DNA from: an uncultured Bacteroidota bacterium
GTDB lineage: Bacteria; Bacteroidota; Bacteroidia; Flavobacteriales; Flavobacteriaceae
Assembly: GCA_902604715.1 (NCBI GenBank)
Contig: CACLAD010000012.1
Location: 1 to 35,462, forward strand
Reading direction: 5' to 3'
Length of the DNA stretch: 35,462 nt
Of the stretch, positions 3,904 through 20,367 are shown in pieces. Position numbers and translations under genes: made by a program. How positions within the stretch are numbered: the stretch's first letter is position 1; every line of letters starts with the position of its first letter. The notes beneath the pieces are model-generated. The model was not told the origin of the DNA, ran no database searches, and saw only the letters and a list, made by a program, of their open reading frames with translations.

Positions 3904-4092
3904 ATGATTTGCTGTAATTGTGGAGCTGAATGTTCCAATAATAATTTTGATGCTTACCCTTTATATCCTAAAGATAATCGTGTATGTGGCAAGTGTGTGT
4001 TTGAGGTTATCTTTAAAAAGAATGATTGTAATATGGTAGGGATAAACTACAAGACTAAACATTGGTCTTACTATCCTTTAAAGGATGTTTAG
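3904..4092 (+). CDS. Small zinc-ribbon-like protein
   Basis: A 62-residue protein with two cysteine pairs (CCNCGAEC near the start and CGKC near residue 28), the usual spacing for a single zinc knuckle, around a DAYPLYP segment. Similar short Cys-pair proteins with an AYP motif occur in phages and bacterial chromosomes, but I cannot assign a function. It follows the shared upstream element at 3811-3854. Its stop codon TAG at 4090-4092 falls inside the edge of repeat R copy 1, which reads the other way. It is probably a real gene, given four well-placed cysteines and an ATG start. Confidence 0.6.
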   Translation: MICCNCGAECSNNNFDAYPLYPKDNRVCGKCVFEVIFKKNDCNMVGINYKTKHWSYYPLKDV

Positions 4093-4116
4093 CTTTTTCA
4101 TATCGTATGTTGGTTA
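4078..4116 (-). repeat. Repeat R copy 1 with stub MKKLNIL
   Basis: On the minus strand, directly at the stop of the 4114-4731 gene, the bases read TAACCAACATACGAT and then ATGAAAAAGCTAA. The ATG at 4101 opens only a 7-residue stub ending at 4078. This is the reference copy of the R family. Confidence 0.8.
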
Positions 4117-4731
4117 ATCTAAATATATAGGATTAAAGTCTCTTTTACCGAACAACATATCAATTTGATTTTGATGTAGTTTAAAGTACCCTCTTTTATT
4201 TCCATTCTTTCTAACTTTAACTATTGCACTGAAACCCTTGATGTCCATCGTATTTTCAATTTCAAATATAGTTTCTCTTATTTTTATAGTTGTTTTTTCA
4301 AGGGCCCCACAAGCATCATAGAATTTATTGTATAAAATTTCTAATTCTTTTTCAGTAGCATTAAATACGACACTATGCTTAAGCTTTTCCAATTGTTTAG
4401 TCTCTTTATTTCTTTCAAAATAATAGTGTGATAACAAGTAGGCTTGAGAATCAGGTTTTTTTTCTAAGAAAGGGCCTAATCTTGCTGCTTTTCCAATAGC
4501 TTTTAGCTTTATTTTTTTTTTATTTTTGTAATAAATACCCAAAAAATTAGGAATCATTGCAATTAAAGCATATGTAATTGCTGTTAAAAGAGAACTTGAA
4601 AATCTTGGAAGATAGTCCCCAATCAAATCAAAATTAAAAACAATAAATATCAAGGCTAATGATAACGTACTACCATAATTAACAAAGAACTTGTTTATAT
4701 CGTATGTTGGTTTTACTATTAGCTTTTTCAT
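4114..4731 (-). CDS. Membrane protein of unknown function
   Basis: A 205-residue protein with two predicted membrane helices (about 19-38 and 45-67), then a basic segment YYKNKKKIKLK and a soluble C-terminal domain of about 130 residues. I do not recognise the family. The start is odd: the first 12 codons (MKKLIVKPTYDI) are made from the two halves of repeat R in swapped order, so the beginning of this gene may be recent. It overlaps a 42-codon ORF upstream by ATGA (4728-4731), which suggests translational coupling, and is followed directly by R copy 1. Confidence 0.7.
   Translation of the reverse strand: MKKLIVKPTYDINKFFVNYGSTLSLALIFIVFNFDLIGDYLPRFSSSLLTAITYALIAMIPNFLGIYYKNKKKIKLKAIGKAARLGPFLEKKPDSQAYLLSHYYFERNKETKQLEKLKHSVVFNATEKELEILYNKFYDACGALEKTTIKIRETIFEIENTMDIKGFSAIVKVRKNGNKRGYFKLHQNQIDMLFGKRDFNPIYLD
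4698..4731 (-). repeat. Repeat R copy 2, halves in permuted order
   Basis: On the minus strand this reads ATGAAAAAGCTAATAGTA and then AAACCAACATACGATAT. Elsewhere the second block precedes the first. Both blocks are in frame in the coding sequence of the 205-residue membrane protein. Confidence 0.7.
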
Positions 4732-4856
4732 TTTTTCAAATATTTATACATTAAAAATGCTAAAAAGAGTCCAAGTCCAAGTATAGTGATAATAAATAAA
4801 TTATCGCTGATTAAAGATTCTTTGAGTGTATCTGTATGTAAAAGTATCTTTTTCAA
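4728..4856 (-). CDS. Small single-helix membrane protein (42 aa)
   Basis: Read with a TTG start at 4856, this frame gives a 42-residue peptide with an N-terminal amphipathic part (KKILLHTDTLKE) and one membrane helix (about 19-36, IITILGLGLFLAFL), ending YKYLKK. There is no ATG in frame. Its TGA stop overlaps the ATG of the downstream 205-residue membrane protein as ATGA, the main reason to consider it coding. The start codon is uncertain. No family is recognised. Confidence 0.4.
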   Translation of the reverse strand: MKKILLHTDTLKESLISDNLFIITILGLGLFLAFLMYKYLKK

Positions 4857-4889
4857 AAAAATTATTTTGAAATTTTATATTTTCATTGC

Positions 4890-4976
4890 TTAGCCAAACA
4901 TCTTCCCAAATAAGCATAAAAAATATCTGAATGCTGAGCCAATTTGTACAACTATTTTTTTTAATAAGTTAATCAT
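4890..4976 (-). CDS. Small amphipathic/hydrophobic peptide (28 aa)
   Basis: A 28-codon frame from ATG at 4976 to TAA at 4890. The peptide begins MINLLKKIVVQIGSAF and ends with a hydrophobic, basic LFGKMFG, so it is likely membrane-active or membrane-bound. Its ATG overlaps the TGA of the repeat-R stub MKRLILL (ATGA at 4973-4976), so ribosomes ending on the stub could restart here. It could be chance, as it is short and has no known relatives that I can name. Confidence 0.35.
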   Translation of the reverse strand: MINLLKKIVVQIGSAFRYFLCLFGKMFG

Positions 4977-5014
4977 AGTAGTATTAGCCTTTTCATATAG
5001 TATGTGTTAGTCAA
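4973..5014 (-). repeat. Repeat R copy 3 with stub MKRLILL
   Basis: Starting at the stop of the 5015-5539 lipoprotein gene, the minus strand reads TTGACTAACACATACTAT and then ATGAAAAGGCTAATACTA. It is a diverged R copy whose ATG at 4996 gives a 7-residue stub ending in TGA at 4973. Confidence 0.7.
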
Positions 5015-5539
5015 TTATTCTATTTCTCTATTCGACATATCTCTTTGATACAAGTAAGCCTTTTTAATTTTCCCATTTATTATTTGTGCATCAAAAATTC
5101 TTTGGAAATTATTTGCACTATCACCCTCACCATAACTTGTATTTAAGCAAGTGGTTACCCAATTTTCGGAAGGCTTATCTCTAAAATTTATATCTGAAGA
5201 AATAGACCATAATATTTCCCATTTTGCATTGGGAAACAAATCTAAAAATTGTTTTGACATTTCAATATGTTGCTTACTCCCCTCAATAACCTGACCTGTA
5301 TGGGTAAAACCTAAAAAATCCTCGTGTTCTAAACTTTTAACAGTTTCAAGATCTTTATTGTTATATCCTTCAAAATAGTTTACGATTACTTCAAGTGAGG
5401 CTTGATCTCCCGTAGTTATATCTACTTTACTTCCATCCTCAGACTCATATCCAAATACATTTGATTTTTCTGCATTGTTACACCCAAGAAATAACAATGA
5501 AATAATTAATAGAAAGTAAAATTTAAAATGGTTTTTCAT
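5015..5539 (-). CDS. Lipoprotein with SnoaL/NTF2-like domain
   Basis: A 174-residue protein with a lipoprotein signal (lipobox LLFLGC, Cys at about 20), so it is probably anchored in an envelope membrane facing the periplasm or outside. The mature part looks like a SnoaL/DUF4440 cone-fold domain: a helix with VIVNYFEGYNNKDLETVKSL, then HEDFLGFTHTGQVIEGSKQHIE, and a C-terminal strand with FDAQIINGKIKKAYLYQ. Such domains bind small hydrophobic ligands or act as isomerases; the ligand is unknown here. It is preceded by P copy 1 and followed by R copy 3. A second lipoprotein of similar type lies at 30141. Confidence 0.7.
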   Translation of the reverse strand: MKNHFKFYFLLIISLLFLGCNNAEKSNVFGYESEDGSKVDITTGDQASLEVIVNYFEGYNNKDLETVKSLEHEDFLGFTHTGQVIEGSKQHIEMSKQFLDLFPNAKWEILWSISSDINFRDKPSENWVTTCLNTSYGEGDSANNFQRIFDAQIINGKIKKAYLYQRDMSNREIE

Positions 5540-5555
5540 AATATTAGTTGTTTAA

Positions 5556-5604
5556 TGTATCTACAAGTTAGTGAAAAAGTTGTTTATGGTTTATTGTATT
5601 TTGC
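5556..5604 (-). repeat. Repeat P copy 1 (internally shortened)
   Basis: Upstream of the 5015-5539 gene. It shares the gene-proximal part with P copies 2 and 5 (AACTTGTAGATACATT and CCATAAACAACTTTTTCAC on the minus strand) and the distal part GCAAAATACAAT. It lacks about 30 bases between them, including the TTGAC and CCTCGTTTCTTAC blocks. Confidence 0.7.
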
Positions 5605-5863: not shown

Positions 5864-6031
5864 TTGAAGAGGTCATATAAGATTGCTTGTATCATATCCT
5901 TGTCGATAAGTACCCTCGCATTTATTATTTGGAGAGTTTATGATATTACTTTGGCTGAGCCATTTATTTGGGCAGGTATCGTGTTAGGAACAATACTTGT
6001 TTGGCTAAACCCATCAAAGCCTAAATCATAG
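5864..6031 (+). CDS. Small two-helix membrane protein (55 aa)
   Basis: A frame with TTG start at 5864 and TAG stop at 6029-6031. The product begins with a basic KRSYK, has two hydrophobic segments (about 7-23 and 31-48), a short WRVYD loop and a polar tail ending NPSKPKS. This is the positive-inside layout expected of a real small membrane protein. The S motif TAAATCATAGG overlaps its stop, as it does at two other plus-strand gene ends. It lies 25 bases before the PAQR gene and may be co-transcribed. No family is recognised. Confidence 0.5.
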   Translation: MKRSYKIACIISLSISTLAFIIWRVYDITLAEPFIWAGIVLGTILVWLNPSKPKS

Positions 6032-6032
6032 G
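6022..6032 (+). repeat. S motif copy 1
   Basis: TAAATCATAGG, here containing the TAG stop of the 55-residue ORF. The same 11 bases sit at two other plus-strand gene ends (6692 and 15647). Confidence 0.45.
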
Positions 6033-6055
6033 CATAATTATTGTAGATTTAGAGC

Positions 6056-6694
6056 GTGCAAGTCATTAGCCTAAAAGATTATAAAAATGAAGAGTTGTGG
6101 AATGTATTAACACATTTTTTTGGTCTTATAATGTCAATTATAGGAATTCCTTTTTTATTTTATTTTGACACTAACATTACCTTCCTTAGCACACTATCAG
6201 TTATATTATTTTCCTTTGGCTTATTGTTTGTTTATTCATCCTCATCTATTTATCATTTTGTTATAAACCCCAAGCTTAAAAAAATATTTCAAGTAATTGA
6301 CCACATTAGTATATATTATCTCATCTTGGGTTCTTATGCGCCTGTGTGCCTAATAACTCTATACGACTATTCAGGCATTAGCATATTTGTAGTTGTACTA
6401 ACTTTATCCATTACAGGAACTTTTAAAAAATTATTTTTTACAGGCAAGTATGAATTTATATCTCTTTTACTATACTTAGCAATGGGATGGCTAATAATTT
6501 TTGACATTGATTCATTATTTAATTTAATTGATTTCAACGCTAAGCTGTTAATAATTCTTGGTGGAGTTTCCTATACATTTGGGATTATATTTTATGCTTT
6601 TGATAAGATAAAGTATTTTCATTCAATATGGCATTTATTTGTGTTAGTAGGCTCAGTGTTACATTATTTTGTGGTATTGCTTTATATCATCTAA
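6056..6694 (+). CDS. trhA: Hemolysin III / PAQR family membrane protein
   Basis: A 212-residue protein with seven hydrophobic segments. It carries the family residues: NEELWNVLTHFFG before the first helix, SSSIYH after helix two (a putative metal-binding His), DHISIYYLILGSYAP, and HSIWHLFVLVGSVLHYFVV near the end with two further His. Bacterial PAQR proteins (YqfA/TrhA/HlyIII) are inner-membrane proteins linked to membrane lipid homeostasis. The start is GTG at 6056; length and layout match the family. Confidence 0.88.
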   Translation: MQVISLKDYKNEELWNVLTHFFGLIMSIIGIPFLFYFDTNITFLSTLSVILFSFGLLFVYSSSSIYHFVINPKLKKIFQVIDHISIYYLILGSYAPVCLITLYDYSGISIFVVVLTLSITGTFKKLFFTGKYEFISLLLYLAMGWLIIFDIDSLFNLIDFNAKLLIILGGVSYTFGIIFYAFDKIKYFHSIWHLFVLVGSVLHYFVVLLYII

Positions 6695-6702
6695 ATCATA
6701 GG
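6692..6702 (+). repeat. S motif copy 2
   Basis: TAAATCATAGG beginning with the TAA stop of the PAQR gene. Confidence 0.45.
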
Positions 6703-6766
6703 TATATATTCCTCTTTTAATTCAGCAAACTCTTTATTATATTAGTAATTAAATAATTTAAATAAA

Positions 6767-7276
6767 ATGAAGAATATTTATACACTAATACTTTTATTAA
6801 CTGCATTTTCCTGTACAATCAATCAAACTAATACTGAACCCATAATTGTCAGTGATGCTGATAACGACGATTTAATTGTTTTGGTTGAATGGTCTGTTAA
6901 TGAAGGTGCTGAAGTTGACTTAGAAGAATGGAGTGATGCTTGGTCAAAAATGGTTGTTGAAACTGAACCATTAACTACATCTTGGAGATTTTTTATAAAT
7001 GAAGATAAATCACGAGTAACTATGTACGAATCTTATACTACTTGGAAAGGATTATTGCATCACGATAAAAGAATTACTGAAGGTGACCTTAAAGATAGAT
7101 TACCAGAGGTTTTTGCAAGATATAAGTTTGAAGGAGTTACAGTTCTTGGTCCAGTTACTGATGAGTTAAAACAATTTTTTTTAGATATAGGATTTGATAA
7201 AGCAATGTATAATTCCGAGGGAAAGTTAATAGAATTTGACTACAGAAGCAGTATAGGTGGTTACACAAAAAAATAG
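6767..7276 (+). CDS. Lipoprotein with ABM-like ferredoxin-fold domain
   Basis: A 169-residue protein with a lipoprotein signal (LTAFSC, Cys at about 16). The mature part reads as a dimeric alpha/beta-barrel domain like antibiotic biosynthesis monooxygenases: strand LIVLVEWSV, helix EEWSDAWSKMVVET, strand TTSWRFFINEDKSRVTMYESY, then a WKGLLHHDK helix and a second helix before a YKFEGVTVLGP strand. Some members oxidise or bind small aromatic compounds; here it may only be a binding module. It has its own upstream region and is convergent with the next gene. Confidence 0.65.
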   Translation: MKNIYTLILLLTAFSCTINQTNTEPIIVSDADNDDLIVLVEWSVNEGAEVDLEEWSDAWSKMVVETEPLTTSWRFFINEDKSRVTMYESYTTWKGLLHHDKRITEGDLKDRLPEVFARYKFEGVTVLGPVTDELKQFFLDIGFDKAMYNSEGKLIEFDYRSSIGGYTKK

Positions 7277-7310
7277 TCAATTGACAATAGGCATAACTTT
7301 TAATTTTTGG

Positions 7311-8201
7311 CTAAAAATCTAATTTTAAGTAAAAATCCTTTATATCAAAATCAATTTTTTCAATCTTATTTAAATTCAACCATTGAAAAAATTTAGAAAA
7401 TACATTTTCATTAATTTTCCCAAAACTATCTTGTTCACCAAAATACTTTCGTGAGAAATTAATTGCATTTTTCAGGTTTATTTTTTTATCATCATCACTT
7501 AAATATTTGTATAAAATTTCTGACGACTCTTGAACATTATTGACACTATATATAAACCCTTTTTTTGTTGCTTTTAAAAACATCTTAATTGAACTTTTTT
7601 TTTCACTAATAAGTTTAGAAGATGTAGTTATTAAAGGGGAATATGAATAAGGTATATTGAAATCACTTAGTTTAAAACACTTTAGGTCAGGTTTTTCAAT
7701 ACCCTCCCAGTTTAAAAAAATCCAAGTAGAATCATATTTGTTATTTGCAACAGTATTCCAAACACCTAATCTTTCGGGGTAATATATTTTTACATTTCCT
7801 TTGCCCCCATCATTTTTAATCAATTGCTTAATAATTAAATCTTCATATCTGGCACCATATGAAGCATAAGACTTATCATCTAAATCCCTTGGACGGTTAA
7901 TATTATTGCCTTTCATAACAGCAATTGCACTTATATCATTTTGAAAAATTGTTGCTAAAGCGTAAAGTTTGAATGGTTTTCTTTTTGTTCGAAAACTAAT
8001 TATAGATTCTGTTGGACAAAGAGCAAAGTCAGCAAGATTTAATTCTATTTTCTTTGCAGGTGAATACTTATAATTATCTGCCTCTGGTGAAATTATTTCT
8101 AAATCAATATTAAGTTTATCATAAAAACCCTTTTCTTTTGCTACATAGAATCCGATATGATTGATATTGGGCGTCCAATCAAGAGCTAGCCTTAGGTCCA
8201 T
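7311..8201 (-). CDS. NMT1/THI5-like protein without signal peptide
   Basis: A 296-residue protein that begins directly with LALDWTPNINHIGFYVAKEKGFY, the signature of the NMT1/THI5 family, which includes the bacterial pyrimidine-precursor binding protein ThiY and the fungal suicide enzyme Thi5. It has the usual two-lobe length and the YASYGARYED segment that corresponds to the YVGEFGK region. Unlike ABC binding proteins it has no signal peptide or lipobox, and no permease or ATPase gene is adjacent. So it may be cytosolic, either a binding protein used differently or an enzyme-like homologue. The Thi5 CCCFC motif is absent. Confidence 0.7.
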   Translation of the reverse strand: MDLRLALDWTPNINHIGFYVAKEKGFYDKLNIDLEIISPEADNYKYSPAKKIELNLADFALCPTESIISFRTKRKPFKLYALATIFQNDISAIAVMKGNNINRPRDLDDKSYASYGARYEDLIIKQLIKNDGGKGNVKIYYPERLGVWNTVANNKYDSTWIFLNWEGIEKPDLKCFKLSDFNIPYSYSPLITTSSKLISEKKSSIKMFLKATKKGFIYSVNNVQESSEILYKYLSDDDKKINLKNAINFSRKYFGEQDSFGKINENVFSKFFQWLNLNKIEKIDFDIKDFYLKLDF

Positions 8202-8377
8202 TGTTTTATTGTGAATTAAAAATGAGCATAAAATTTTTACTTTTTTGAATATAATAAAAATATGGTTTGCTTTTTGTAATATGTTGGATTTATGGTTTAA
8301 AAAATTACGAATTTCATAACAATTTTTTCTTTGAGTTTTCTAAATAGTATTTTAAATTATATAAAGTTATTTTATCT

Positions 8378-9838
8378 ATGAAAGTTTCAATAATAGGGTC
8401 AGGAGTAAGTGGAATAAGTGCTGCAATACGACTAAGGTCTAAAGGATTTGATGTAGAGGTCTATGAAAAAAATACAATGCCTGGTGGAAAACTTAATACT
8501 TTCAAATTAGACAGATTTAGATTTGATGCCGGTCCTTCATTATTTACTATGCCACAGCTGGTAGACGAGTTATTTGAAATCAATAATTTGAATCCTAGGG
8601 ATTACTTTACTTATAAAAAAAAGAAAATACATTGTAAATATTTTTGGGATGATAAAACAAAATTTACTGCATACTCAAATAGAAAAAAATTTCTAAAAGA
8701 GGTTAAAAATAAATTTAAGGTAGACGAGTCTGTGGTAGATAAATATCTAAAAAGGGCAAAAATAAAATATGATTTAACGGAGAAAATTTTTTTAAGAAAA
8801 TCACTACATAAATTATCTAGTTTTTTAAATATCGAAACAATTAAAGCCCTATTTAACTTAAATATTTTTCAAATAAATAAAACATTAAATGAAGTAAATT
8901 CAGATGAATTAAAAAATAAATACCTAATACAAATATTTGATAGGTATGCGACATATAATGGTTCATCTCCTTACAAAACTCCCGGTATGATGACATTAAT
9001 TCAACACTTGGAAAATCATTTTGGAACATTTGTGCCAGAAGGGGGGATGTATGAAATAACAAATGCTTTATTCAATTTAGCGAAGCAAATAGGAGTAAAA
9101 TTTTATTTTGGTTGTAATGTTGACGAGATTATCATAGAAAAAAAAGCTGCTAAAAAGATAAGAGTAAATAATAACTTGATTGATTCTGATATCATTATTT
9201 CAAATGTCGATGTAAATTTTACCTATAAAAATCTAATAAAACAAAAATTTAATCATAGATCTTTGAAAAATGAAAGCTCTAGCTCTGCTTTAATTTTTTA
9301 TTGGGGAATAAAAGGAACTTATAATGAGTTAGACCTTCACAACATATTTTTTTCTTCAAATTACAAGGAGGAGTTTAATTCAATTTTTGAAAAAAAACAA
9401 ATTTTTGATGATCCCACTGTTTATGTTAATATTTCGTGTAAGGATGTTTCCTCGGATGCTCCCAAAGGTTCAGAAAATTGGTTTGTCATGATTAATTCAC
9501 CATATAATATAAATCAAAATTGGGATAGACAAATTCAAATAAGTAGAAAAAAAATAATTAATAAACTTGAGAAAATACTTGGCATAGAGATTGGAAAAAA
9601 TATAGTAAAAGAAAAAGTTTACAGCCCAATTGATTTAGAATCAAATACAAATTCATTTAACGGTTCATTGTATGGCAGCTCAAGTAATAATATTATGTCC
9701 TCTTTTATGAGACACCCAAATTTCACTAAAAAAATAAAAAATCTTTTCTTCTGCGGAGGAAGTGTACATCCGGGTGGCGGGATACCTTTAGCAATTCTAT
9801 CATCAAAAATAGTTTCTGATTTAATTGAAAGCGAATAA
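8378..9838 (+). CDS. crtD: Carotenoid desaturase, CrtI/CrtD family (probable 3',4'-desaturase)
   Basis: A 486-residue FAD enzyme. The N-terminus has the Rossmann motif (IIGSGVSGISAA, Gly7-Gly12) followed by YEKNTMPGGKLNTF and FRFDAGPSLFTMP. The C-terminus has the carotenoid-desaturase signature GGSVHPGGGIPLAILSS. The family covers phytoene desaturase (CrtI) and the CrtD desaturases that add a 3',4' double bond next to a hydroxylated psi end. The tight link to cruF-like and crtA-like genes and the lack of crtB nearby favour CrtD. It overlaps the next gene by 14 bases, so they are one operon. Desaturase versus ketolase/oxidase members cannot be fully separated by eye. Confidence 0.85.
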   Translation: MKVSIIGSGVSGISAAIRLRSKGFDVEVYEKNTMPGGKLNTFKLDRFRFDAGPSLFTMPQLVDELFEINNLNPRDYFTYKKKKIHCKYFWDDKTKFTAYSNRKKFLKEVKNKFKVDESVVDKYLKRAKIKYDLTEKIFLRKSLHKLSSFLNIETIKALFNLNIFQINKTLNEVNSDELKNKYLIQIFDRYATYNGSSPYKTPGMMTLIQHLENHFGTFVPEGGMYEITNALFNLAKQIGVKFYFGCNVDEIIIEKKAAKKIRVNNNLIDSDIIISNVDVNFTYKNLIKQKFNHRSLKNESSSSALIFYWGIKGTYNELDLHNIFFSSNYKEEFNSIFEKKQIFDDPTVYVNISCKDVSSDAPKGSENWFVMINSPYNINQNWDRQIQISRKKIINKLEKILGIEIGKNIVKEKVYSPIDLESNTNSFNGSLYGSSSNNIMSSFMRHPNFTKKIKNLFFCGGSVHPGGGIPLAILSSKIVSDLIESE

Positions 9839-10460: not shown

Positions 10461-10475
10461 TGTTTATAATTTAAT

Positions 10476-11177: not shown

Positions 11178-11180
11178 AAA

Positions 11181-12110: not shown

Positions 12111-12117
12111 TTAGCTC

Positions 12118-12371: not shown

Positions 12372-12615
12372 ATTGTTTGTTCATATTACCTTTACGGTCT
12401 CTAATTTTCTCAAGATCTCTTTCATTTATATCAACAATAACCCCCGTCTTTGTATCAACCCTGTAGAGCTGAGTCTTGACACCTTTAACACCAACTGCGA
12501 TTTGATAGCGACCAACTTCTTTCTCATCAGCGTTTGTTGTTACCGAAATAAATAATGAAATAACACCTACTATTGCAAGTGAATATAAAATAATCTCTTT
12601 TAGTTTTGTTCTCAT
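12370..12615 (-). CDS. Small membrane-anchored protein of unknown function
   Basis: An 81-residue protein with one N-terminal hydrophobic segment (about 8-26, EIILYSLAIVGVISLFISV) and a charged soluble tail containing VGRYQIAVGVKGVKTQLYRVDTKTG, a short beta-rich unit in which a value and its metadata seem to repeat in strand-turn-strand form. The tail ends KIRDRKGNMNKQ. I do not recognise the family. P copy 2 lies directly upstream and R copy 5 starts at its stop, the same arrangement as for the other repeat-flanked genes. Confidence 0.65.
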   Translation of the reverse strand: MRTKLKEIILYSLAIVGVISLFISVTTNADEKEVGRYQIAVGVKGVKTQLYRVDTKTGVIVDINERDLEKIRDRKGNMNKQ

Positions 12616-12633
12616 AATGTTTAGGTTGTTTAA

Positions 12634-12708
12634 TGTATCTACAATATAGTAAGTTGTTTATGGTTTGTCAAGTAAGAAACGAGGATATTGACATGTTGTA
12701 TTTTGCCC
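12634..12708 (-). repeat. Repeat P copy 2, promoter-like
   Basis: Full-length P copy before the 81-residue gene. On the minus strand: ATATCCTCGTTTCTTAC, then TTGACAAACCATAAACAAC, then TTACTATATTGTAGATACAT. TTG at 12671-12669 and TATATTG at 12648-12642 are separated by 20 bases, close to the Bacteroidota TTG-N19-TAnnTTTG layout. Confidence 0.75.
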
Positions 12709-12835
12709 TATTCCTTATACGTGGTCTGAATAATAAACTTAATACTGTTTTTAAATTAAGTTTCTGTTTGGTAAATTATTATTAAAGTACAATACGGAAC
12801 ATTTATTGCTTATAATATAAGTTGTTTTACATATT

Positions 12836-13006
12836 ATGAGAAGAACACGCACAAATGATTATATTAATATTGAAAGAGCAACAGATCTTGAGTGGGTTGT
12901 TTTTGATAAAAGACATTTAAAAAGGGCAAACAAGAAAAAAGCTACAAGAAGAAATAGAAGATACAAGAACAATCTAATAAATCATCTTGTAAAAAAAATT
13001 AATTAA
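12836..13006 (+). CDS. Small basic protein (56 aa)
   Basis: A 56-residue frame starting MRRTRTNDYINIERATDLEWVV and continuing with a strongly basic stretch (KRHLKRANKKKATRRNRRYK), likely nucleic-acid or ribosome binding. No membrane segment. It begins with ATG at 12836 and ends 14 bases before the FMN-binding protein, so the two may form a unit. The intergenic region is shared with the divergent 81-residue gene. No family is recognised; coding is supported by composition and spacing. Confidence 0.5.
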   Translation: MRRTRTNDYINIERATDLEWVVFDKRHLKRANKKKATRRNRRYKNNLINHLVKKIN

Positions 13007-13020
13007 GACCACTAATTGAA

Positions 13021-13596: not shown

Positions 13597-13682
13597 AATA
13601 AGAATACACAATTGTGATTTAACCTTTTATTAAAGTTACATCTTAAAGTTACAATTTTTTGGCAGTTATATGACAGTCCTAA

Positions 13683-13727
13683 TAAAAAGTGGCAGCTCAT
13701 TTTGTACTTCAAAACTTTAATAAAAAT
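13683..13727 (+). promoter_or_regulatory. Shared upstream element, copy 2
   Basis: About 45 bases matching 3811-3854 in order (TGGCA, CTCATTT, then CAAAACTTTAATAAAAATT). The GG at 13691-13692 is followed ten bases later by TG rather than GC, so it does not fit sigma-54 spacing as well as copy 1. Within it and just beyond, TAATAAAAA-TGGCA-like blocks repeat at 13680-13694 and 13718-13732. It precedes the fasciclin gene. Confidence 0.4.
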
Positions 13728-13733
13728 TGGCAT

Positions 13734-15663: not shown

Positions 15664-17115
15664 CTACTCTTTAATTATTTTATGAGTTGAGGTGTTTATA
15701 CCGTCAGTTAGATTGAGAATATAAGTGCCTTTTTCTAATGAGCTAATATCAAGCCTACCATTAATATTCCTTCTGAACAATTCTTTACCAGTTAGATCTA
15801 AAACGACTGCTTCCAACTCAGAATCAATACTTACATTGATATACTGAGATGATGGATTTGGAAAAAAATCAATTAGATTTGAAATATTATAAATGTTATT
15901 TGTTAAACTTGGATTTACAATCTTCATAACACCAACTTCAGTATCGCCAAACGCATCAGTGTCATTAAATATTACAAAACCATTTTCGGTTAAATCACCA
16001 TATTCAGTTGCAGTATTTACCCCCTCATGGCAAAAAACATCACTTCTAATTATGTTACCATTAAAATCAGTAAATAAAACCCATCCGTTCCAAACATCTG
16101 ATGATTCAAAGGGTGGATTAGTAGCAGAATATGACTCATTTTCATCGCCAGTCCCCCCAAATAAATATACACCATCATCGGAAACTTTTAATCCGTATAA
16201 TTCGTTTCTAATATATTCTAAATCGTAATCCCTTGGATTTGCATAATGTTTAGCCCACAATATATTTGCCTCTAAATCAATTTTTATAGAAGAATAGTCA
16301 AAAGGCTCTCCATTGCCCTCTCTTTCCCTGTGTCCACCATAATAAATTATATCGTTATGTATATCCAAATCTGCAGGAATTATTGCCTGTGTATCATAGA
16401 GATTACGTGTCCAAAATTCATTACCACTATTATTCAACTTTGTTAAAGTCAGGTCACCTTCGTAATTAGTTGAGCCGTAATATAAATCTCCATTTGAAGA
16501 TTCAACAATTGAGACTGCATATTCTGTTTGACTATTGATAGCTGTCCAAATTTCTTGTCCATTTGACGGGTTTACTTTTATCGTCATCGCATTTCCCCCA
16601 TAAACTATAAAAATTGTATCAGATTCGTCTCCGCCGATGAATCCTGCACCATATATATATCCGTCGTTTCCTACAATAGTTGACCTTATGCCATCGAACA
16701 TTGATGAGCTTCCACTTGAATTGTAATCCTGATTCCAAATTATTGACCCATTGTCTCCATCCAGTCTTGCCATCCACCTTTCTTGTGTATTTCCTGATCC
16801 ACCACTAACTATATAATCAACCCTGTTGTTATCATTAATTTCTGTAATGCCAAAACCTACAGTATTATTTATTGTTATGGACCATATTAGTTCGCCGTTT
16901 TGACCATCAATTTTATGAATTCTTGATTGATTATCAGGCATAAATACAACAGCTAAATTTCCATCAGAATCTACTAAACCTTTGTTTACTTTACCTGGGT
17001 TTCCCTCGGAGAAAACACTTTCCCAAATTATATTTTGATTATAATCCGAATTATCGGGGATTATTTGAGCACTATTAATTAAAGGAATAAATAGTAATAT
17101 TATTAGCTTTTTCAT
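15664..17115 (-). CDS. Secreted beta-propeller protein with type IX sorting domain
   Basis: A 483-residue protein. The signal peptide (MKKLIILLFIPLINSAQ) is encoded by repeat R copy 6. The body shows repeated propeller-like units ending in IDGQNGELIWS, LDGDNGSIIWN and VNPSNGQEIWT, typical of PQQ-like repeats, with WxK- or calcium-like turns DSDGN and NDNNR. The last 75 residues (FFPNPSSQYINV...GKELFRRNINGRLDISSLEKGTYIL...HKIIKE) are a type A type IX secretion C-terminal domain. It should be exported to the cell surface or released; its ligand is unknown. It ends convergent with the MFS gene. Confidence 0.88.
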   Translation of the reverse strand: MKKLIILLFIPLINSAQIIPDNSDYNQNIIWESVFSEGNPGKVNKGLVDSDGNLAVVFMPDNQSRIHKIDGQNGELIWSITINNTVGFGITEINDNNRVDYIVSGGSGNTQERWMARLDGDNGSIIWNQDYNSSGSSSMFDGIRSTIVGNDGYIYGAGFIGGDESDTIFIVYGGNAMTIKVNPSNGQEIWTAINSQTEYAVSIVESSNGDLYYGSTNYEGDLTLTKLNNSGNEFWTRNLYDTQAIIPADLDIHNDIIYYGGHREREGNGEPFDYSSIKIDLEANILWAKHYANPRDYDLEYIRNELYGLKVSDDGVYLFGGTGDENESYSATNPPFESSDVWNGWVLFTDFNGNIIRSDVFCHEGVNTATEYGDLTENGFVIFNDTDAFGDTEVGVMKIVNPSLTNNIYNISNLIDFFPNPSSQYINVSIDSELEAVVLDLTGKELFRRNINGRLDISSLEKGTYILNLTDGINTSTHKIIKE

Positions 17116-17129
17116 ATCGAATGTTGCTT
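17101..17129 (-). repeat. Repeat R copy 6 (used as gene start)
   Basis: AGCAACATTCGAT and then ATGAAAAAGCTAATA on the minus strand, beginning at the stop of the OsmC gene. The ATG is the start of the T9SS propeller gene. The identity with R copy 11 continues through the signal peptide (2 differences in the first 32 bases of the two genes). Confidence 0.75.
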
Positions 17130-17556
17130 AGTCTACTGATGCTAATGAAGCATTTACAGAAATATCGCAATTTAAAGCTCCTGAGATAGGACAATTATTT
17201 TTTGCTTCAAGCACCAATTTATCAAATAAAATCTTACTAATTTCAGGAACATTCGCAATAAGTTTTAGTAATATTTCAACTATTTTACCATTTTCAAATA
17301 TTAGTATAGCATCTGTATTCAATTCAATAGGATGGTAGTTGTTTTCATTAAGAACAAAGCTTAATTTCATATTAAAACAACCTGCAAGAGCTGCGGCGAT
17401 CAATTCCTCAGGATTTGTCCCGAGATCACCTTTATCATTTTCAAATCTCGTTTTGAAACTGTATGGCATTTCATTAAAAGCACCGCTTTGAGCTGTTAAT
17501 ATACCCTGCCCATTTGCTCCACCGCCTTGCCAAATTGCATTTACTTTTCTTTTCAT
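17128..17556 (-). CDS. osmC: OsmC family peroxiredoxin
   Basis: A 142-residue protein with both catalytic cysteines of the OsmC/Ohr family: Cys60 in NPEELIAAALAGCFNMKL and Cys122 in NNCPISGAL. Beginning KVNAIWQGGGANGQGIL, it belongs to the OsmC branch rather than Ohr. These cytosolic enzymes reduce organic hydroperoxides with thiol reductants. It lies 16 bases after the R stub MKKLMLLLSYK and is followed at once by R copy 6. The P copy 3 promoter upstream of the preceding 55-residue gene may drive it. Confidence 0.92.
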   Translation of the reverse strand: MKRKVNAIWQGGGANGQGILTAQSGAFNEMPYSFKTRFENDKGDLGTNPEELIAAALAGCFNMKLSFVLNENNYHPIELNTDAILIFENGKIVEILLKLIANVPEISKILFDKLVLEAKNNCPISGALNCDISVNASLASVD

Positions 17557-17572: not shown

Positions 17573-17622
17573 TTATTTATAAGATAGTAATAGCATTAGC
17601 TTTTTCATATCGTATGTTGGTT
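17573..17622 (-). repeat. Repeat R copy 7, stub MKKLMLLLSYK
   Basis: AAACCAACATACGAT and then ATGAAAAAGCTAATGCTA on the minus strand, between the 55-residue gene and osmC. The ATG at 17608 opens an 11-residue stub with TAA at 17573. It is one of the best-preserved copies. Confidence 0.8.
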
Positions 17623-17630: not shown

Positions 17631-17798
17631 TTATTCATTTATTTTACTCCAGAAAAGAAAAAATGCAAATAAAAATAATAGTAAGACAAGGACTATTCCC
17701 GTCACTCCATCAAAGTTAAAACCAAATTCTTGTGCATAAAAAAATATAACTATACCAATAACTATTGTAATTAGGTTCAAAGTAAGTTTTTTTTTCAT
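17631..17798 (-). CDS. Small two-helix membrane protein (55 aa)
   Basis: A 55-residue protein beginning MKKKLTLNLITIVIG with two hydrophobic helices (about 6-24 and 34-50) separated by QEFGFNFDGVTG, ending FWSKINE. No known family is recognised. It starts with ATG at 17798, 17 bases from the edge of P copy 3, and its stop is followed within ten bases by R copy 7. The P-gene-R arrangement is the same as for the 81-residue gene at 12370. Confidence 0.65.
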   Translation of the reverse strand: MKKKLTLNLITIVIGIVIFFYAQEFGFNFDGVTGIVLVLLLFLFAFFLFWSKINE

Positions 17799-17814
17799 AT
17801 TGTTAATCGCACAA

Positions 17815-17888
17815 TGTATCTACAAGATAGTAAGTTGTTTGGCGTCAGTCAAGTAACAAACGATTATATTGATATGTCGTATATTGCC
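17815..17888 (-). repeat. Repeat P copy 3, promoter-like
   Basis: ATACGACATATCAATATAATC, split here for reading: the distal block ends ATCAATATAATCG, then TTTGTTACTTGACTGACG, then CAACTTACTATCTTGTAG. TTG at 17852-17850 and TATCTTG at 17829-17823 are 20 bases apart. It precedes the 55-residue membrane protein gene. Confidence 0.7.
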
Positions 17889-18021
17889 TTGCTAATTTAC
17901 ATCGTAGTCTATATAAATTGGCAACTATTATGTAAACTTATATAAAAAGCTTAAGGGAAGATTAGCTTTGTTATATTTTTGGTATATAATTTGTGTTTGA
18001 AATTTTATAAATATATCATTG

Positions 18022-18207
18022 ATGTATAGTTTATTAAATATTGGTAGATTATATTTAGTTCTGGGTTTCATTTCTATATTGGTTTATTTAAATATTCCAG
18101 ATGAAATGAATCAGTCCACAATGGCAGTATGGATTCTTGGACTTAGCTCTATTTATTTTGTTTTAGGTATAAGAAGACTTATAAGGCATTATAAGGAAAA
18201 TAAATAA
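18022..18207 (+). CDS. Small two-helix membrane protein (61 aa)
   Basis: A 61-residue protein with two helices (about 4-24 and 34-52), a short acidic loop NIPDEMNQST and a basic C-terminus RRLIRHYKENK, fitting a positive-inside hairpin. ATG at 18022 is chosen over TTG three bases earlier. It is one of only two plus-strand genes inside the repeat-rich minus-strand stretch. No family is recognised. Confidence 0.6.
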   Translation: MYSLLNIGRLYLVLGFISILVYLNIPDEMNQSTMAVWILGLSSIYFVLGIRRLIRHYKENK

Positions 18208-18267: not shown

Positions 18268-18290
18268 TTATAGCATTAGCTTTTTCATTA
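18268..18290 (-). repeat. Repeat R copy 8, stub MKKLML
   Basis: ATGAAAAAGCTAATGCTATA on the minus strand; six residues then TAA. It lies head to head with the start of the plus-strand methyltransferase gene at 18294, so it is not needed as a start there. Only the coding half of R is preserved. Confidence 0.6.
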
Positions 18291-18293
18291 AAA

Positions 18294-18737
18294 ATGTTAA
18301 AAATACCACCCCCTGTATTAGTTCTTATTTTGGTTGTTTCTAATTATTTTTCATCCAAAAAAATTGATTTAATTCTTCTGCCAAATCAAAACTTAATTTC
18401 GTTTATTATACTTTTAACCGGAGTACTTATTTTAACTAATCCAATTCTTAAGTTTATAAAATCAAAAACTACAATTGACCCGATAAAGTTTAAAAAAGTT
18501 AATAAACTCATTACCTCGGGAATCTATAAATATTCAAGAAACCCTATGTACTTAGGTTTACTAATGATTGTTACATCAACATCAATATTCTATTTGAATA
18601 TTTTCACGATTACAACACCTATCTTTTTTATTTGTTGGATAAATAGATTTCAAATTAAAAGAGAGGAGATTTTCCTTACAGAAAAATTTGGTAAAGAATA
18701 TATATCATACAGGACCAAAACAAGAAGATGGATATAG
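18294..18737 (+). CDS. Isoprenylcysteine methyltransferase-like membrane enzyme
   Basis: A 147-residue protein with about four helices and the conserved C-terminal block of the ICMT/PEMT family: LITSGIYKYSRNPMYLG (about 78-94), then EEIFLTEKFGKEYISYRTKTRRWI, which forms the SAM-binding part. Bacterial members methylate carboxyl or other groups of small hydrophobic molecules; the substrate is unknown. It is monocistronic and convergent with the 70-residue gene, with R copy 9 between them. Confidence 0.85.
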   Translation: MLKIPPPVLVLILVVSNYFSSKKIDLILLPNQNLISFIILLTGVLILTNPILKFIKSKTTIDPIKFKKVNKLITSGIYKYSRNPMYLGLLMIVTSTSIFYLNIFTITTPIFFICWINRFQIKREEIFLTEKFGKEYISYRTKTRRWI

Positions 18738-18768
18738 TATTAGTTTTTTCTTTTTGTCTGTGGGTTTA
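18734..18768 (-). repeat. Repeat R copy 9 (decayed, no start)
   Basis: AAACCCACAGACAAAAAG and then AAAAAACTAATACTAT on the minus strand, 15 bases after the 70-residue gene. The ATG has become AAG. It overlaps the last codons of the plus-strand methyltransferase. Confidence 0.5.
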
Positions 18769-18783: not shown

Positions 18784-18996
18784 TCATTCGGGTTTATCGT
18801 GTTTTGGAAAGTAGTCGTTTTTCCAAAGATGGATAAGAATAATTATACCAGCACCTAAAGAAACTAGAAACCCATATAAATGTGTATCTAGTCCGAAACG
18901 GATGTATTGAATTAAATTATATAAGAAAAATACATCAAGGATAACAAGCGTAAAAAAGATATAATGATTAGAGTTTGTAGATTTTAGTTTTTTCAT
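18784..18996 (-). CDS. Small two-helix membrane protein (70 aa)
   Basis: A 70-residue protein: MKKLKSTNSNHYIFF, helix about 12-29, second helix about 41-58 (GFLVSLGAGIIILIHLW), tail KNDYFPKHDKPE. Its ATG lies in R copy 10 and overlaps the TGA stop of the upstream DoxX-like gene as ATGA, so it is translationally coupled to it. No family recognised; possibly an accessory subunit of the DoxX-like pair. Confidence 0.65.
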   Translation of the reverse strand: MKKLKSTNSNHYIFFTLVILDVFFLYNLIQYIRFGLDTHLYGFLVSLGAGIIILIHLWKNDYFPKHDKPE

Positions 18997-19010
18997 ATCG
19001 ATTGTTGTAA
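18984..19010 (-). repeat. Repeat R copy 10 (diverged, spans a stop/start overlap)
   Basis: TTACAACAATCGAT and then ATGAAAAAACTAAAA on the minus strand. Here the repeat supplies both the last codons and stop of the DoxX-like gene and the start of the 70-residue gene. Confidence 0.5.
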
Positions 19011-19328
19011 GATTATTATACCTAAAATTAGATATGCTATAGCAGGAAGAATTTCAGAAATATTATCTTTTATTTTAATTCTAACATAAACAGCTACAAG
19101 CATCATAATTATTAAAATTACTGAACTAATCATCAGCATAAAATTCAATTTTAAACCAATTAGTATCCCTATACCACAGGCTAGTTGAACACTTCCGATC
19201 TCCTTTCTTCTTTTTCCCAATCCCCATCTTTCAAATTCCAAAATCATTTTATTTGAAATAAAAGAATTTATACCATACGCAATAAAGGATATGGCTGTGA
19301 AAACTGTAATTATGTTGTATACCTCCAT
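18993..19328 (-). CDS. DoxX-like membrane protein B
   Basis: A 111-residue four-helix protein beginning MEVYNIITVFTAISFIAYG, with LEFERWGLGKRRKEIGSVQLACGIGILIGL, the pattern of DoxX-like (DoxX_2) proteins, and an ending LPAIAYLILGIIIL. ATG 19328 overlaps the TAA of the upstream paralogue (TAATG) and aligns its N-terminus with that protein, so it is preferred to the ATG five codons earlier. It is a paralogue of the neighbouring gene. Confidence 0.8.
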   Translation of the reverse strand: MEVYNIITVFTAISFIAYGINSFISNKMILEFERWGLGKRRKEIGSVQLACGIGILIGLKLNFMLMISSVILIIMMLVAVYVRIKIKDNISEILPAIAYLILGIIILQQSI

Positions 19329-19672
19329 TAAATTAAGCCACAATTAAACGAAGCAATAAATAAAGACATAATCAAAAATATTAGCGATGGAACAAACTTA
19401 AAAAAAGGATTTTTAACCTTTATATGAGAAAGTTGCGCACACAACATAAAGAAAGCCATTGATAGGGACGCATAAATTGTAATTTCATTATACCACAACC
19501 CCAGTATTAATAATGTAGAAGTTGATGTTTTGGCAACCCCTACAAAATTTCTTAATAAGTCAGGATATCCATAATGTTTAAATTCAACTATAATGTTATC
19601 ATATCTAAAAACCCAAACTATAAGAACAGATATTGCAACGATTAATTGAAATGCAATTGAAATATTTTCCAT
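19328..19672 (-). CDS. DoxX-like membrane protein A
   Basis: A 114-residue four-helix protein beginning MENISIAFQLIVAISVLIVWVFR, with VEFKHYGYPDLLRNFVGVAKTSTSTLLILGLW and FMLCAQLSHIKVKNPFFKFVPSLIF. This matches the DoxX_2 pattern. The family includes small membrane proteins linked to sulfur or redox metabolism, but most members are uncharacterised. It is first in a coupled three-gene unit (A, B and the 70-residue protein), each joined by an overlap. P copy 4 lies directly upstream. Confidence 0.8.
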   Translation of the reverse strand: MENISIAFQLIVAISVLIVWVFRYDNIIVEFKHYGYPDLLRNFVGVAKTSTSTLLILGLWYNEITIYASLSMAFFMLCAQLSHIKVKNPFFKFVPSLIFLIMSLFIASFNCGLI

Positions 19673-19696
19673 AGTAAAATAATTATCTTATTAAAA

Positions 19697-19766
19697 TAAA
19701 GATAGTAAGTTGTTAAGGGTTTTACAAGTAAGAAACGAGGATATCGATATGTCGTATGATGGTTTA
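19697..19766 (-). repeat. Repeat P copy 4, with R-like left end
   Basis: Begins at the stop of the DinB-like gene with TAAACCATCATACGA (R-like), continues CATATCGATATCCTCG and TTTCTTACTTG (P-like), then CAACTTACTATCTTTA. TTG at 19727-19725 and TATCTTTA at 19704-19697 are 20 bases apart. It drives the DoxX-like unit by position. Confidence 0.75.
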
Positions 19767-20351
19767 GTTTGAGCCTGAAGTTTTTCCTATAAATACATTT
19801 ACCCCTGATTGTAAAGGGTTTCCACTTGCTCTTCTATTCATAACCACTTGACCACAATGCCACAAAGCATCAGAAATTGGCCCATTAATTTGATTCCAAA
19901 ATGGAAACTCCATCATATTACCACCTCTTTCAAAACTTATATTTAGCTTTGAAAAGTCAGGATTTAATTTTAATTGTTCGTTAATGTATTTCAAATTTAA
20001 TAACGTTTTTTCTCTTAACTCATTGTAACGATAGTTCACATTCGAAAACTCATATTGTTGATTTTTAAACGATGAAGAAATCATATTAGTCAAGCTATAT
20101 ATGTGTTTGATTATTTCTAATGTAGATCTTGCATCTTCACTTGATTTGTATTCTAAGTCTGTTTCTCTTAGTGATTTTGAAGCCCAATAATATCTATAAC
20201 CTAGACCCTCAATCATTCTTGAAACAATATTAGCTTCAGAAAAATCGGTTGGATATTCTGAAATATCACTAAAAGGTAGATTAAAGTTCTGATCCTTTAT
20301 TTGACCAAAGGAAACAAGTGGAATAAATAGTAATAGTATTAGATTTTTCAT
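19764..20351 (-). CDS. Secreted DinB-like protein
   Basis: A 195-residue protein with a signal peptide (MKNLILLLFIPLVSFGQ) encoded by repeat R copy 11. The mature part is a four-helix bundle of the DinB/YfiT type: RMIEGLGYRYYWASKSL, STLEIIKHIYSLTNMI (first His of the metal triad, about 85), and the ending FPFWNQINGPISDALWHCGQVVMNRRASGNP with another His. DinB proteins are usually cytosolic metal-binding bundles, some acting as thiol-dependent transferases, so the export signal is unusual. It lies 26 bases after the 88-residue gene. Confidence 0.82.
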   Translation of the reverse strand: MKNLILLLFIPLVSFGQIKDQNFNLPFSDISEYPTDFSEANIVSRMIEGLGYRYYWASKSLRETDLEYKSSEDARSTLEIIKHIYSLTNMISSSFKNQQYEFSNVNYRYNELREKTLLNLKYINEQLKLNPDFSKLNISFERGGNMMEFPFWNQINGPISDALWHCGQVVMNRRASGNPLQSGVNVFIGKTSGSN

Positions 20352-20367
20352 ATCGTATGTTGGTTTA
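20331..20367 (-). repeat. Repeat R copy 11 (used as gene start)
   Basis: AAACCAACATACGAT and then ATGAAAAATCTAATACTA on the minus strand, supplying the start of the DinB-like gene. Similarity to R copies 4 and 6 continues through TTACTATTTAT. Confidence 0.8.

What the first reader, a model, noticed from the sequence alone, without database searches (positions are those of the whole stretch)
4078..20367. Dispersed repeat R that carries its own start codon and signal-peptide beginning
Eleven copies of a short element (CCAACATACGAT followed by ATGAAAAAGCTAAT) occur at 4078-4116, 4698-4731, 4973-5014, 12118-12159, 12346-12371, 17101-17129, 17573-17622, 18268-18290, 18734-18768, 18984-19010 and 20331-20367. 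All point to the minus strand, almost all sit directly at a gene end or start, and none lies in the surrounding conserved genes. Their spread among unrelated small genes suggests a mobile intergenic element or a cassette-junction sequence. I know of no described element like it. Alternative: a duplicated leader from one ancestral gene.
Basis: seen in the sequence. Interest (0 to 1): 0.78.

Follow-up and report, generated by a model that had tools for sequence, protein, structure and literature searches.

The report
Junction repeat of shuffled gene cassettes
In a group of tiny ocean bacteria, a short repeated DNA word marks the joints at which single small genes beside a transfer-RNA gene are swapped and reordered between species, much as in an integron but with a different kind of joint and no fixed recombinase gene.

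Summary
The repeat is real and marks the joints of a gene-cassette array. Its core CAACATACGATATGAAAAA occurs 99 times (reversed-pattern control 9) in 19 of 21 genomes of this streamlined marine flavobacterial genus; among 197 other sampled family genomes none has more than two. In 15 stretches anchored at tRNA-Asn or tRNA-Ala, 63 of 63 copies point toward the tRNA. Recurring gene ends before the repeat join different genes after it in 23 of 25 cases; the reverse holds in 23 of 24. Breakpoints map into an 18-bp core. The leader ATGAAAAAGCTAATACTATT is a separate module.

It is not an integron by the tests made. The only tyrosine recombinases beyond strong XerC/XerD-like ones lie in or beside arrays: intact in two genomes, fragments in a third. 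Their 3' end is also dispersed as a junction and shares GATATG with the repeat. Best reading: an integron-like variant of tRNA-anchored additive islands, built by such an integrase that most genomes, this one included, no longer show. Catalysis is inferred; RecA recombination at short repeats is the main rival.

The parts
3642..3716 (+). tRNA-Asn gene that anchors the array
   Evidence: ARAGORN and Rfam RF00005; the same tRNA anchors arrays in sister genomes
3744..3769 (-). Sequence just 3' of tRNA-Asn (terminator-like, GAAACCTCCGATTTCTCGAAGGCTTT on the minus strand); different array ends join directly to it in sister genomes; candidate island att core
   Evidence: second, internal copy in L095 at 7565
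3812..3855 (-). Arm-like direct repeats GAGTGCCAAATGAGTGCC at the tRNA-proximal end of the array
   Evidence: (family D12); similar element at tRNA-Asn and tRNA-Ala arrays in sister genomes
4089..4116 (-). R copy 1 (full core); the stop codon of 4114-4731 abuts it
4114..4731 (-). Cassette gene (205 aa, no Pfam match); its tail is joined to something else in L095; its start carries leader then left half of R
4691..4713 (-). R copy 2: left half CCAACATACGATATAAACAAG inside the reading frame of 4114-4731
4973..5014 (-). R copy 3, diverged
   Evidence: family D1, 73%
5015..5539 (-). Cassette gene, SnoaL-like below Pfam cut-off; homologue at another array position in L054 (14485-15009)
5531..5592 (-). 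Promoter-like module (shortened, P2 type) before gene 5015-5539
6693..6711 (-). Relic of an integrase 3' end (GAATATATACCTATGATTT, 2 mismatches to the int tail)
6023..6041 (-). Weaker int-tail junction (ATAATTATGCCTATGATTT, 4 mismatches); same hybrid in L098 and L111
12134..12157 (-). Right half only (leader GAAGAAGCTAATACTATTACTATT) without left half
12608..12730 (-). Promoter-like module P1 before gene 12370-12615
   Evidence: (family D2)
13624..13728 (-). Second, diverged arm-like end inside the island; 13624-13692 matches the tRNA-proximal end of L054 at 90%
   Evidence: (D12)
15664..17115 (-). Cassette gene starting in R; signal-peptide-like start, T9SS C-terminal sorting domain
17103..17129 (-). 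R copy 6, between genes 17128-17556 and 15664-17115
17128..17556 (-). Cassette gene, OsmC family; its tail joins other genes in L096 and L108
17591..17622 (-). R copy 7 (full, with leader)
17631..17798 (-). Small cassette gene (55 aa); its tail joins other partners in L100 and L106
17813..17888 (-). Promoter-like module P1
18268..18290 (-). Right half only (ATGAAAAAGCTAATGCTATAAATATT)
18294..18737 (+). Cassette carrying a gene in the opposite orientation (PEMT methyltransferase); homology block 18275-18742 to L054 17528-17997 ends in the repeats on both sides
18734..18768 (-). R copy 9, diverged
   Evidence: family D6
18784..18996 (-). Cassette gene (70 aa), starts in R copy 10; homologue at L054 12875-13087 with a different upstream neighbour
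18984..19010 (-). R copy 10; also holds the stop codon of 18993-19343 (ATATGA)
18993..19343 (-). Cassette gene, DoxX_2; its tail joins five different downstream clusters in five genomes
19699..19763 (-). Promoter-like module P1 fused directly to an R-like left half (CCATCATACGACATATC)
19764..20351 (-). Cassette gene (195 aa, no Pfam or NCBIfam match), starts in R copy 11
20331..20367 (-). R copy 11 (full, with leader)
20652..20749 (-). Promoter-like module P1 next to the conserved distal flank (gene 20796-21914)

Best explanation
R is the junction sequence of an integron-like array of single-gene cassettes anchored at tRNA-Asn (in other genomes also tRNA-Ala). SHOWN: in the sister genome G055 an array lies at the same tRNA between the same flanking genes with the genes reordered; in the 15 tRNA-anchored stretches R copies point toward the tRNA; genes on both sides of R are exchanged between genomes; breakpoints fall inside the 18-bp core AACATACGATATGAAAAA; a cassette may carry its gene in either orientation, and some junctions carry a promoter-like module. 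INFERRED: a tyrosine integrase of the tRNA-island type recombines cassettes at a short double-stranded core that contains GATATG. Such an integrase is present next to the array in two of 21 genomes, with fragments in a third. The same hexamer is present in the 3' end of the integrase gene (GAAGATATG, codons of its EEDMP tail), so relics of that 3' end also serve as junctions. In most genomes, including this one, no array integrase was found: it has been lost, lies in a missing part, or acts in trans.
For: Clusters in 19 of 21 genomes, 99 copies against 9 for the reversed pattern; in 197 other sampled family genomes 40 stray matches in 36 genomes, at most 2 each, fewer than the reversed-pattern control gives (about 73 by my count). 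Same locus in the sister genome with changed gene order. 23 of 25 recurring upstream ends have at least two different downstream partners, 23 of 24 the other way. Identity of same-upstream pairs falls to the level of unrelated pairs at +1 to +3, that of same-downstream pairs rises weakly from about +5 and clearly from +19 (98 and 72 pairs, not independent). 13 of 14 recurring downstream genes without the leader are still shuffled; in 25 of 31 such pairs the likeness left of +19 ends after 16-24 nt. 63 of 63 copies in 15 stretches point to the tRNA. Homology-block ends within 10 bp of R: 17.1% against 3.2% at random (4,073 ends, not independent). Of 42 PF00589 matches in 21 genomes, 38 are strong and XerC/XerD-like by strength and number (inferred); the other four, one each in G212 and G210 and two fragments below cut-off in G206, lie in or beside an R array. 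No serine recombinase in 21 genomes; one broken Y1-transposase match below cut-off. Int 3'-end motif with at most 2 mismatches in 12 of 31 stretches, 22 copies including 2 intact genes (no shuffled control was run). One clear R-left/int-right hybrid (L101 7589) and two less clear (L102 6739, L093 7052). In another family (L155) int is followed by small genes separated by copies of its own 3' end, one of which diverges right after GATATG.
Against: No array integrase in 18 of 21 genomes, though all are incomplete (56-86%). L100's integrase belongs to an island inserted inside tRNA-Asn and need not act on R. A near Int relative is an ordinary tRNA-Arg island integrase without int-tail repeats (L152). 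Int-tail relics were found in 10 of 23 loci tested, and several are longer int fragments that ordinary decay of tandem islands explains. The int tail and R share only GATATG, and the tail is coding sequence anyway. The L102 6739 hybrid can be joined at another microhomology. The leader module joins many gene ends without the left half of R (65 of 119), so R is not the only joint. One stretch (L100) has a copy on the other strand, and three single copies lie at other tRNAs or none of this geometry (L099, L110, L112). No direct sign of present activity: no circular cassettes, no same-species comparison.
Confidence: 0.5

Rival explanations
1. RecA-type or microhomology-driven recombination between short dispersed modules. 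R, the leader, the promoter modules and the T9SS tail are simply repeated short homologies; crossovers between them shuffle genes and spread the modules further. No dedicated recombinase.
For: Several module types serve as joints; leader and promoter modules give longer homology; promoter variants P2 and P3 look, by eye, like deletions inside P1; 18 of 21 genomes show no array integrase.
Against: 13 of 14 leaderless recurring genes are shuffled with mostly 16-24 nt of likeness left of +19; orientation toward the tRNA in 63 of 63 copies of 15 stretches; breakpoints confined to 18 bp; conservation of an intergenic 10-mer across unrelated gene pairs.
Confidence: 0.3
2. XerC/XerD of the host use R as a dif-like site, so the cassettes are Xer-mobilised modules.
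For: Two strong, XerC/XerD-like PF00589 matches in 17 of 21 genomes and one in the other four; the core has a short dyad CATA-N3-TATG, kept in 73 of 98 copies.
Against: The core does not show the two 11-bp arms and 6-bp centre of dif (recalled); the dif site of this genus was not located; no link between these genes and the arrays was seen.
Confidence: 0.08
3. Ordinary tandem accretion and decay of tRNA-integrated islands; R is a conserved translation-initiation leader from one amplified gene and gene order changed for other reasons.
For: Different boundary types join at the same site next to tRNA-Asn and older ends are nested inside the island (L095 7565, window 13624-13728); the right half often encodes MKKLILLLFIPL signal-peptide starts.
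Against: The left half is shared by genes without the leader and by the promoter modules; partners are exchanged on both sides at the same 18 bp; the methyltransferase cassette is inverted relative to R yet bounded by repeats.
Confidence: 0.09
4. A true integron (attC sites, IntI).
For: Single-gene cassettes, recombinase at one end of the array in L102, mixed gene orientation.
Against: No match over the integron-integrase cut-off in the window's own genome; L102 and L100 Int score 25.7 and 36.2 bits against a cut-off of 265; no enrichment of inverted partners of the core upstream (25 observed, 29.8 expected) or downstream (29 observed, 37.6 expected).
Confidence: 0.01
5. A self-mobile short intergenic element (MITE- or REP-like) that jumps between genes.
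For: Dispersed short repeats at gene ends.
Against: The flanking genes are exchanged; no common inverted repeat beyond CATA-N3-TATG; no Y1 transposase over cut-off in 21 genomes; close copies confined to arrays.
Confidence: 0.02

Closest known systems
Additive flexible genomic islands at tRNA genes (Alteromonas, Actinomarinales, Methylopumilus)
   Same: Conserved tRNA as target, variable cassettes added, same place in related species (PMC4119200, PMC7771536, PMC10872708: passages seen)
   Different: In the Actinomarinales and Methylopumilus passages the tell-tale repeat is part of the tRNA; here the repeat is not tRNA sequence, lies between single genes and is itself the breakpoint
Chromosomal (super)integrons
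   Same: Array of small single-gene cassettes with a short conserved junction, shuffled order, recombinase at one end of the array in L102
   Different: No IntI over cut-off in the own genome, no attC-like partner, short core, no array recombinase in most genomes
Tycheposons of Prochlorococcus and relatives
   Same: tRNA-anchored, tyrosine recombinase, streamlined aquatic hosts (PMC10872708: passages)
   Different: Described there as cargo elements of 4-200 kb; the passages seen describe no single-gene junction repeat
Tyrosine integrases of tRNA genomic islands in Flavobacteriales (e.g. L152, tRNA-Arg)
   Same: L102's Int is 47-54% identical to three of these over most of its length (64% over half for G248) and shares the EEDMP tail with several
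   Different: L152 bounds one restriction-modification island between two tRNA-Arg copies and has no int-tail relics

Membership tests
Integron | Integron integrase (IntI) over the curated cut-off | tested here: not met
   TIGR02249: no match over 265 bits in the window's genome, the only genome searched with it; array-adjacent Int of L102 25.7 and L100 36.2 bits
Integron | attC sites with complementary inner and outer arms | tested here: not met
   Complements of core 7-mers are not enriched up- or downstream of 98 copies; no sequence conservation beyond about -6. A purely structural attC search was not run
Integron | Array of single-gene cassettes with shuffled order | tested here: met
tRNA-anchored additive genomic island | Variable region at a fixed tRNA gene in related genomes | tested here: met
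   tRNA-Asn in 12 and tRNA-Ala in 3 of the 15 stretches used; also tRNA-Asn in L161 and L162
tRNA-anchored additive genomic island | Direct repeats of the tRNA 3' end at cassette borders | tested here: inconclusive
   Only the tRNA-adjacent terminator-like sequence was searched; it recurs once inside L095 (7565); other weak matches (7 mismatches) in L096 and L110. The borders carry R, which is not tRNA sequence
tRNA-anchored additive genomic island | Integrase encoded in the island | tested here: inconclusive
   Present in 2, fragments in 1, not found in 18 of 21 incomplete genomes
Tycheposon | tRNA plus tyrosine recombinase plus cargo modules of several kb | tested here: inconclusive
   tRNA yes; array-linked recombinase in 3 of 21; cargo is mostly single genes. 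Definition from passages of PMC10872708 and recall
Xer-mobilised module (dif-like site) | Two 11-bp Xer arms around a 6-bp centre | not tested
   The dif site of the genus was not located; definition recalled
MITE or REP element | Terminal inverted repeats or hairpins and a matching transposase | tested here: not met
   No Y1 transposase over cut-off in 21 genomes, one broken match below it; no common inverted repeat beyond CATA-N3-TATG. Other transposase families and target duplications were not searched

The most novel reading that the evidence does not exclude
A new integron-analogous gene-capture system of streamlined marine Flavobacteriales: a tRNA-island tyrosine integrase carries its cassette attachment site in the last codons of its own gene (core GATATG) and assembles arrays of single-gene cassettes at that site, using a short double-stranded core and not folded attC sites. 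R is the cassette form of the site in this genus, and the arrays persist and keep shuffling after the integrase is lost, perhaps served in trans. A relative with the same kind of integrase in another family (L155) builds a similar array.
Probability: 0.3. Interest if true: 0.87.

Novelty: new variant of a known kind. Interest (0 to 1): 0.7.

Why it matters
Integrons are the textbook case of a system that stockpiles and reorders single genes. If these arrays work in a comparable way with an unrelated site and a tRNA-island integrase, gene-cassette capture evolved more than once, and in small-genome ocean flavobacteria, where streamlining should remove such luxuries. It would also give a handle (the R core and the int tail) to find cassette genes in ocean metagenomes, many of them of unknown function. 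Even if RecA does the work, it shows that a handful of short modules (joint, promoter, signal-peptide start, secretion tail) are enough to keep a gene nursery in motion.

Tried and rejected
Viral contigs: the 20-mer CCAACATACGATATGAAAAA matched 14 IMG/VR stretches exactly, but each has one copy, after ATG and in like contexts that read MPTYDMKN at the start of a reading frame (the phage protein was not identified further); taken as unrelated.

Rfam: only the tRNA in the window and tRNAs in L102 and L096 (with L155).

attC-like folding: one stretch of L155 with inverted repeats folded no better than its shuffles (z -0.21), and no enrichment of complementary partners of the R core was found.

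Serine recombinase and Y1 transposase as agents: no serine recombinase in 21 genomes; one broken Y1 match below cut-off.

Int outside the genus as proof of the mechanism: of 23 loci tested, 13 show no int-tail relic, among them the ordinary tRNA-Arg island L152; several of the 13 are short contig ends. My note says 11 of 23; the list gives 10, and 10 is used here.

Empty site: of the two genomes without R, G205 has no match to the flanking gene, and in G208 the contig ends about 1.1 kb after that gene without tRNA or motif. A locus without an array was therefore not shown.

Stretches left out of the orientation count: 63 of the 99 copies lie in the 15 stretches with tRNA-Asn or tRNA-Ala; the other 36 lie in 13 stretches that end before a tRNA or have another one. 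Of these 13 only L100 has copies on both strands (5 and 1); L099 (tRNA-Arg), L110 (tRNA-His) and L112 (several tRNAs) have one copy each and do not fit the toward-tRNA geometry or were not assessed.

Literature: searches (capped lists of titles and abstract beginnings) listed no paper on such arrays in this genus. I read only passages of PMC10872708, PMC2426708, PMC4119200, PMC6060240 and PMC7771536.

Full report
OBSERVATION. The core CAACATACGATATGAAAAA occurs six times with at most two mismatches in the 1.39-Mb genome, all inside the window (4.1-20.4 kb) and all on the minus strand; the pattern read backwards gives one match. At up to three mismatches there are ten matches, six of them in the window. 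The eleven listed places are six good copies (one of them, at 4698-4731, with its halves in reverse order), two diverged ones, two with only the right half and one weak one.

RELATIVES. In a sample of 199 genomes of the family, this genome and G055 included, 38 have a match with at most two mismatches. The 197 others have 40 stray matches in 36 genomes, none more than two, and fewer than the reversed-pattern control gives (about 73 by my count). One stray match is exact and lies in G043 about 1.2 kb from a tRNA-Leu, with a leader-like stretch nearer to it; it is a single copy. In the genus, 19 of 21 genomes have matches, 99 in all against 9 for the reversed pattern, mostly in clusters; 27 of 28 stretches with copies have them on one strand only, some with a single copy. 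Named records with an exact 26-base match include MED-G13, MED-G59 and many single-cell genomes of the AG- and AH- series (16 stretches). All 21 genus genomes are incomplete (56-86%).

THE LOCUS. In the sister genome G055 the same locus lies between the same tRNA-Asn and the same distal genes, but the genes between are reordered: window 18784-18996, 5015-5539, 18294-18737 and 18019-18207 have homologues at L054 12875, 14485, 17528 and 16314. In 15 stretches with tRNA-Asn (12) or tRNA-Ala (3), all 63 copies point toward the tRNA; the other 36 copies lie in stretches without such an anchor (see Tried and rejected). Next to the tRNA many arrays end in direct repeats of the type GAGTGCCAAATGAGTGCC. 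At tRNA-Asn I see, by eye, four kinds of end joined to the same terminator-like sequence; older ends lie nested inside the island in L095 and in the window at 13624-13728, so islands were probably stacked at this tRNA.

THE JOINT. I collected 122 copies (up to three mismatches) from 29 stretches and clustered the 145 bases before each and the 150 bases that begin 50 bases after its first base. Of 68 upstream clusters 25 recur, and 23 of these are joined to at least two different downstream clusters; of 74 downstream clusters 24 recur and 23 are joined to at least two upstream clusters. Position by position, pairs with the same upstream gene and different downstream genes (98 pairs) are more alike than unrelated pairs (6,562) up to position 0 of the core and no longer from +1 to +3; pairs with the same downstream gene (72 pairs) become more alike weakly from about +5 and clearly from +19. 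The pairs are not independent. The exchange point therefore lies in AACATACGATATGAAAAA. Fourteen of 24 recurring downstream genes carry no leader, and 13 of these are still shuffled; in 25 of 31 such pairs the likeness left of +19 ends after 16-24 nt. Ends of homology blocks are enriched at R (17.1% within 10 bp, 3.2% at random) and at any of the modules (31.4% against 7.4%); the 4,073 ends are not independent, and blocks must end between genes anyway once genes are reordered.

MODULES. The left half AAACCAACATACGA (102 places, up to two mismatches) is followed by the leader (38), by other ATGAAAAA starts (26), by promoter-like modules P1, P2, P3 (10, 8, 4), by the arm-like repeats (5) or by something else (11). 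The leader GAAAAAGCTAATACTATTACTATT occurs 119 times (up to three mismatches), 54 with the left half and 65 with other left contexts. The promoter-like module contains a TATCTTG-like box that I read, from recall, as a Bacteroidetes -7 element; this was not tested.

RECOMBINASE. PF00589 gives 42 matches in the 21 genomes. Thirty-eight are strong and, by strength and number, XerC/XerD-like (not tested one by one). The other four are an open gene in G212, an open gene in G210 and two fragments below cut-off in G206, and all four lie in or beside R arrays. In L102 (G212) the gene begins next to the tRNA-Asn terminator and its 3' end faces the array. In L100 (G210) it belongs to an island inserted within tRNA-Asn. 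No serine recombinase was found; one Y1-transposase match is broken and below cut-off. The 3' end of the integrase (GAAGATATGCCTATGATTT) recurs in 12 of 31 stretches, 22 copies with up to two mismatches, two of them the open genes (no shuffled control). In L101 an R-type left side clearly runs into the int-type right side; L102 and L093 have less clear cases. Outside the genus, 18 of 395 order genomes carry a relative at E 1e-50. In 10 of 23 loci examined (8 of 21 outside the genus) the last 30 bases of int recur with at least 23 of 30 identities, where shuffled queries reach at most 22. The clearest is L155, in another family: int is followed by small genes separated by copies of GAACTTAATGAAGAGGATATG; one copy runs on further, one diverges right after GATATG and one a few bases before its end. 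But several relics are longer int fragments as ordinary decay would leave, and the ordinary tRNA-Arg island L152 has none.

READING. That R is the junction of a shuffled single-gene cassette array is, in my view, about 90% certain. That a tyrosine integrase of this family made the joints is the best of the available explanations, about 50%, because it is the only array-linked recombinase found and its 3' end shares GATATG with the joints and is itself dispersed among them. RecA or microhomology recombination between the short modules is the main rival (30%). It is not an integron by the tests made. The nearest known kind is the additive genomic island at a tRNA gene (passages), from which it differs by having its own inter-gene joint. 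No paper on it was among those listed by searches, which cover open-licence PMC papers only.

CARGO. The island genes in the window include a haemolysin-III family protein, OsmC, a phospholipid methyltransferase, two DoxX-like proteins, a PQQ-type protein with a T9SS sorting tail, a SnoaL-like protein below cut-off and several small proteins without Pfam match. The haemolysin-III gene (6056-6694) lies between int-tail joints and not between R copies.

Noticed in passing
window 12608-12730, 17813-17888, 19699-19763, 20652-20749, 5531-5592; also G000:C4:8316-8385 (L056): A second dispersed repeat of about 76-120 bp with promoter-like content (P1 and its shortened forms P2, P3), one copy about 2.3 kb from a tRNA-Ala elsewhere in the genome.
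   Followed up: partly
L155 (G248:C25) 571-2930: In another flavobacterial family, an integrase followed by single small genes separated by copies of the integrase's own 3' end.
   Followed up: partly
L100 13640-13810: tRNA-Asn is interrupted by an island whose integrase starts just behind the tRNA's 3' part; an intact tRNA-Asn lies further on (L163 2959-3033).
   Followed up: no
L095 7353-7670: R, arm repeats and tRNA terminator copy run directly into an integrase C-terminal fragment inside the array: probable trace of a second island stacked at tRNA-Asn.
   Followed up: partly
L096 about 10172-10265: A signal-peptide leader runs into an integrase 3' end (leader followed by GGAGATATGCCTGTGATTT), a chimeric small reading frame.
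   Followed up: no
L095 4630-6220: Long gene with repeated 'TASG..STAMG'-like units beside the array, by eye a repeat-rich surface protein; not tested.
   Followed up: no
L058 (G043:C12) 8308-8332 and 9370-9421: In another genus a single exact R core about 1.2 kb from a tRNA-Leu, with a leader-like stretch beside that tRNA.
   Followed up: no
L129-L142 (IMG/VR): A phage reading frame begins MPTYDMKN, whose codons happen to spell CCAACATACGATATGAAAAA.
   Followed up: partly
window 6056-13600: Between the two R-bearing parts of the island lies a block with larger genes, several on the plus strand (FAD-dependent amine-oxidase/desaturase-like 8378-9838, methyltransferase, pyridoxamine oxidase-like); 8378-9838 and 7311-8201 recur beside the array in L100.
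   Followed up: no
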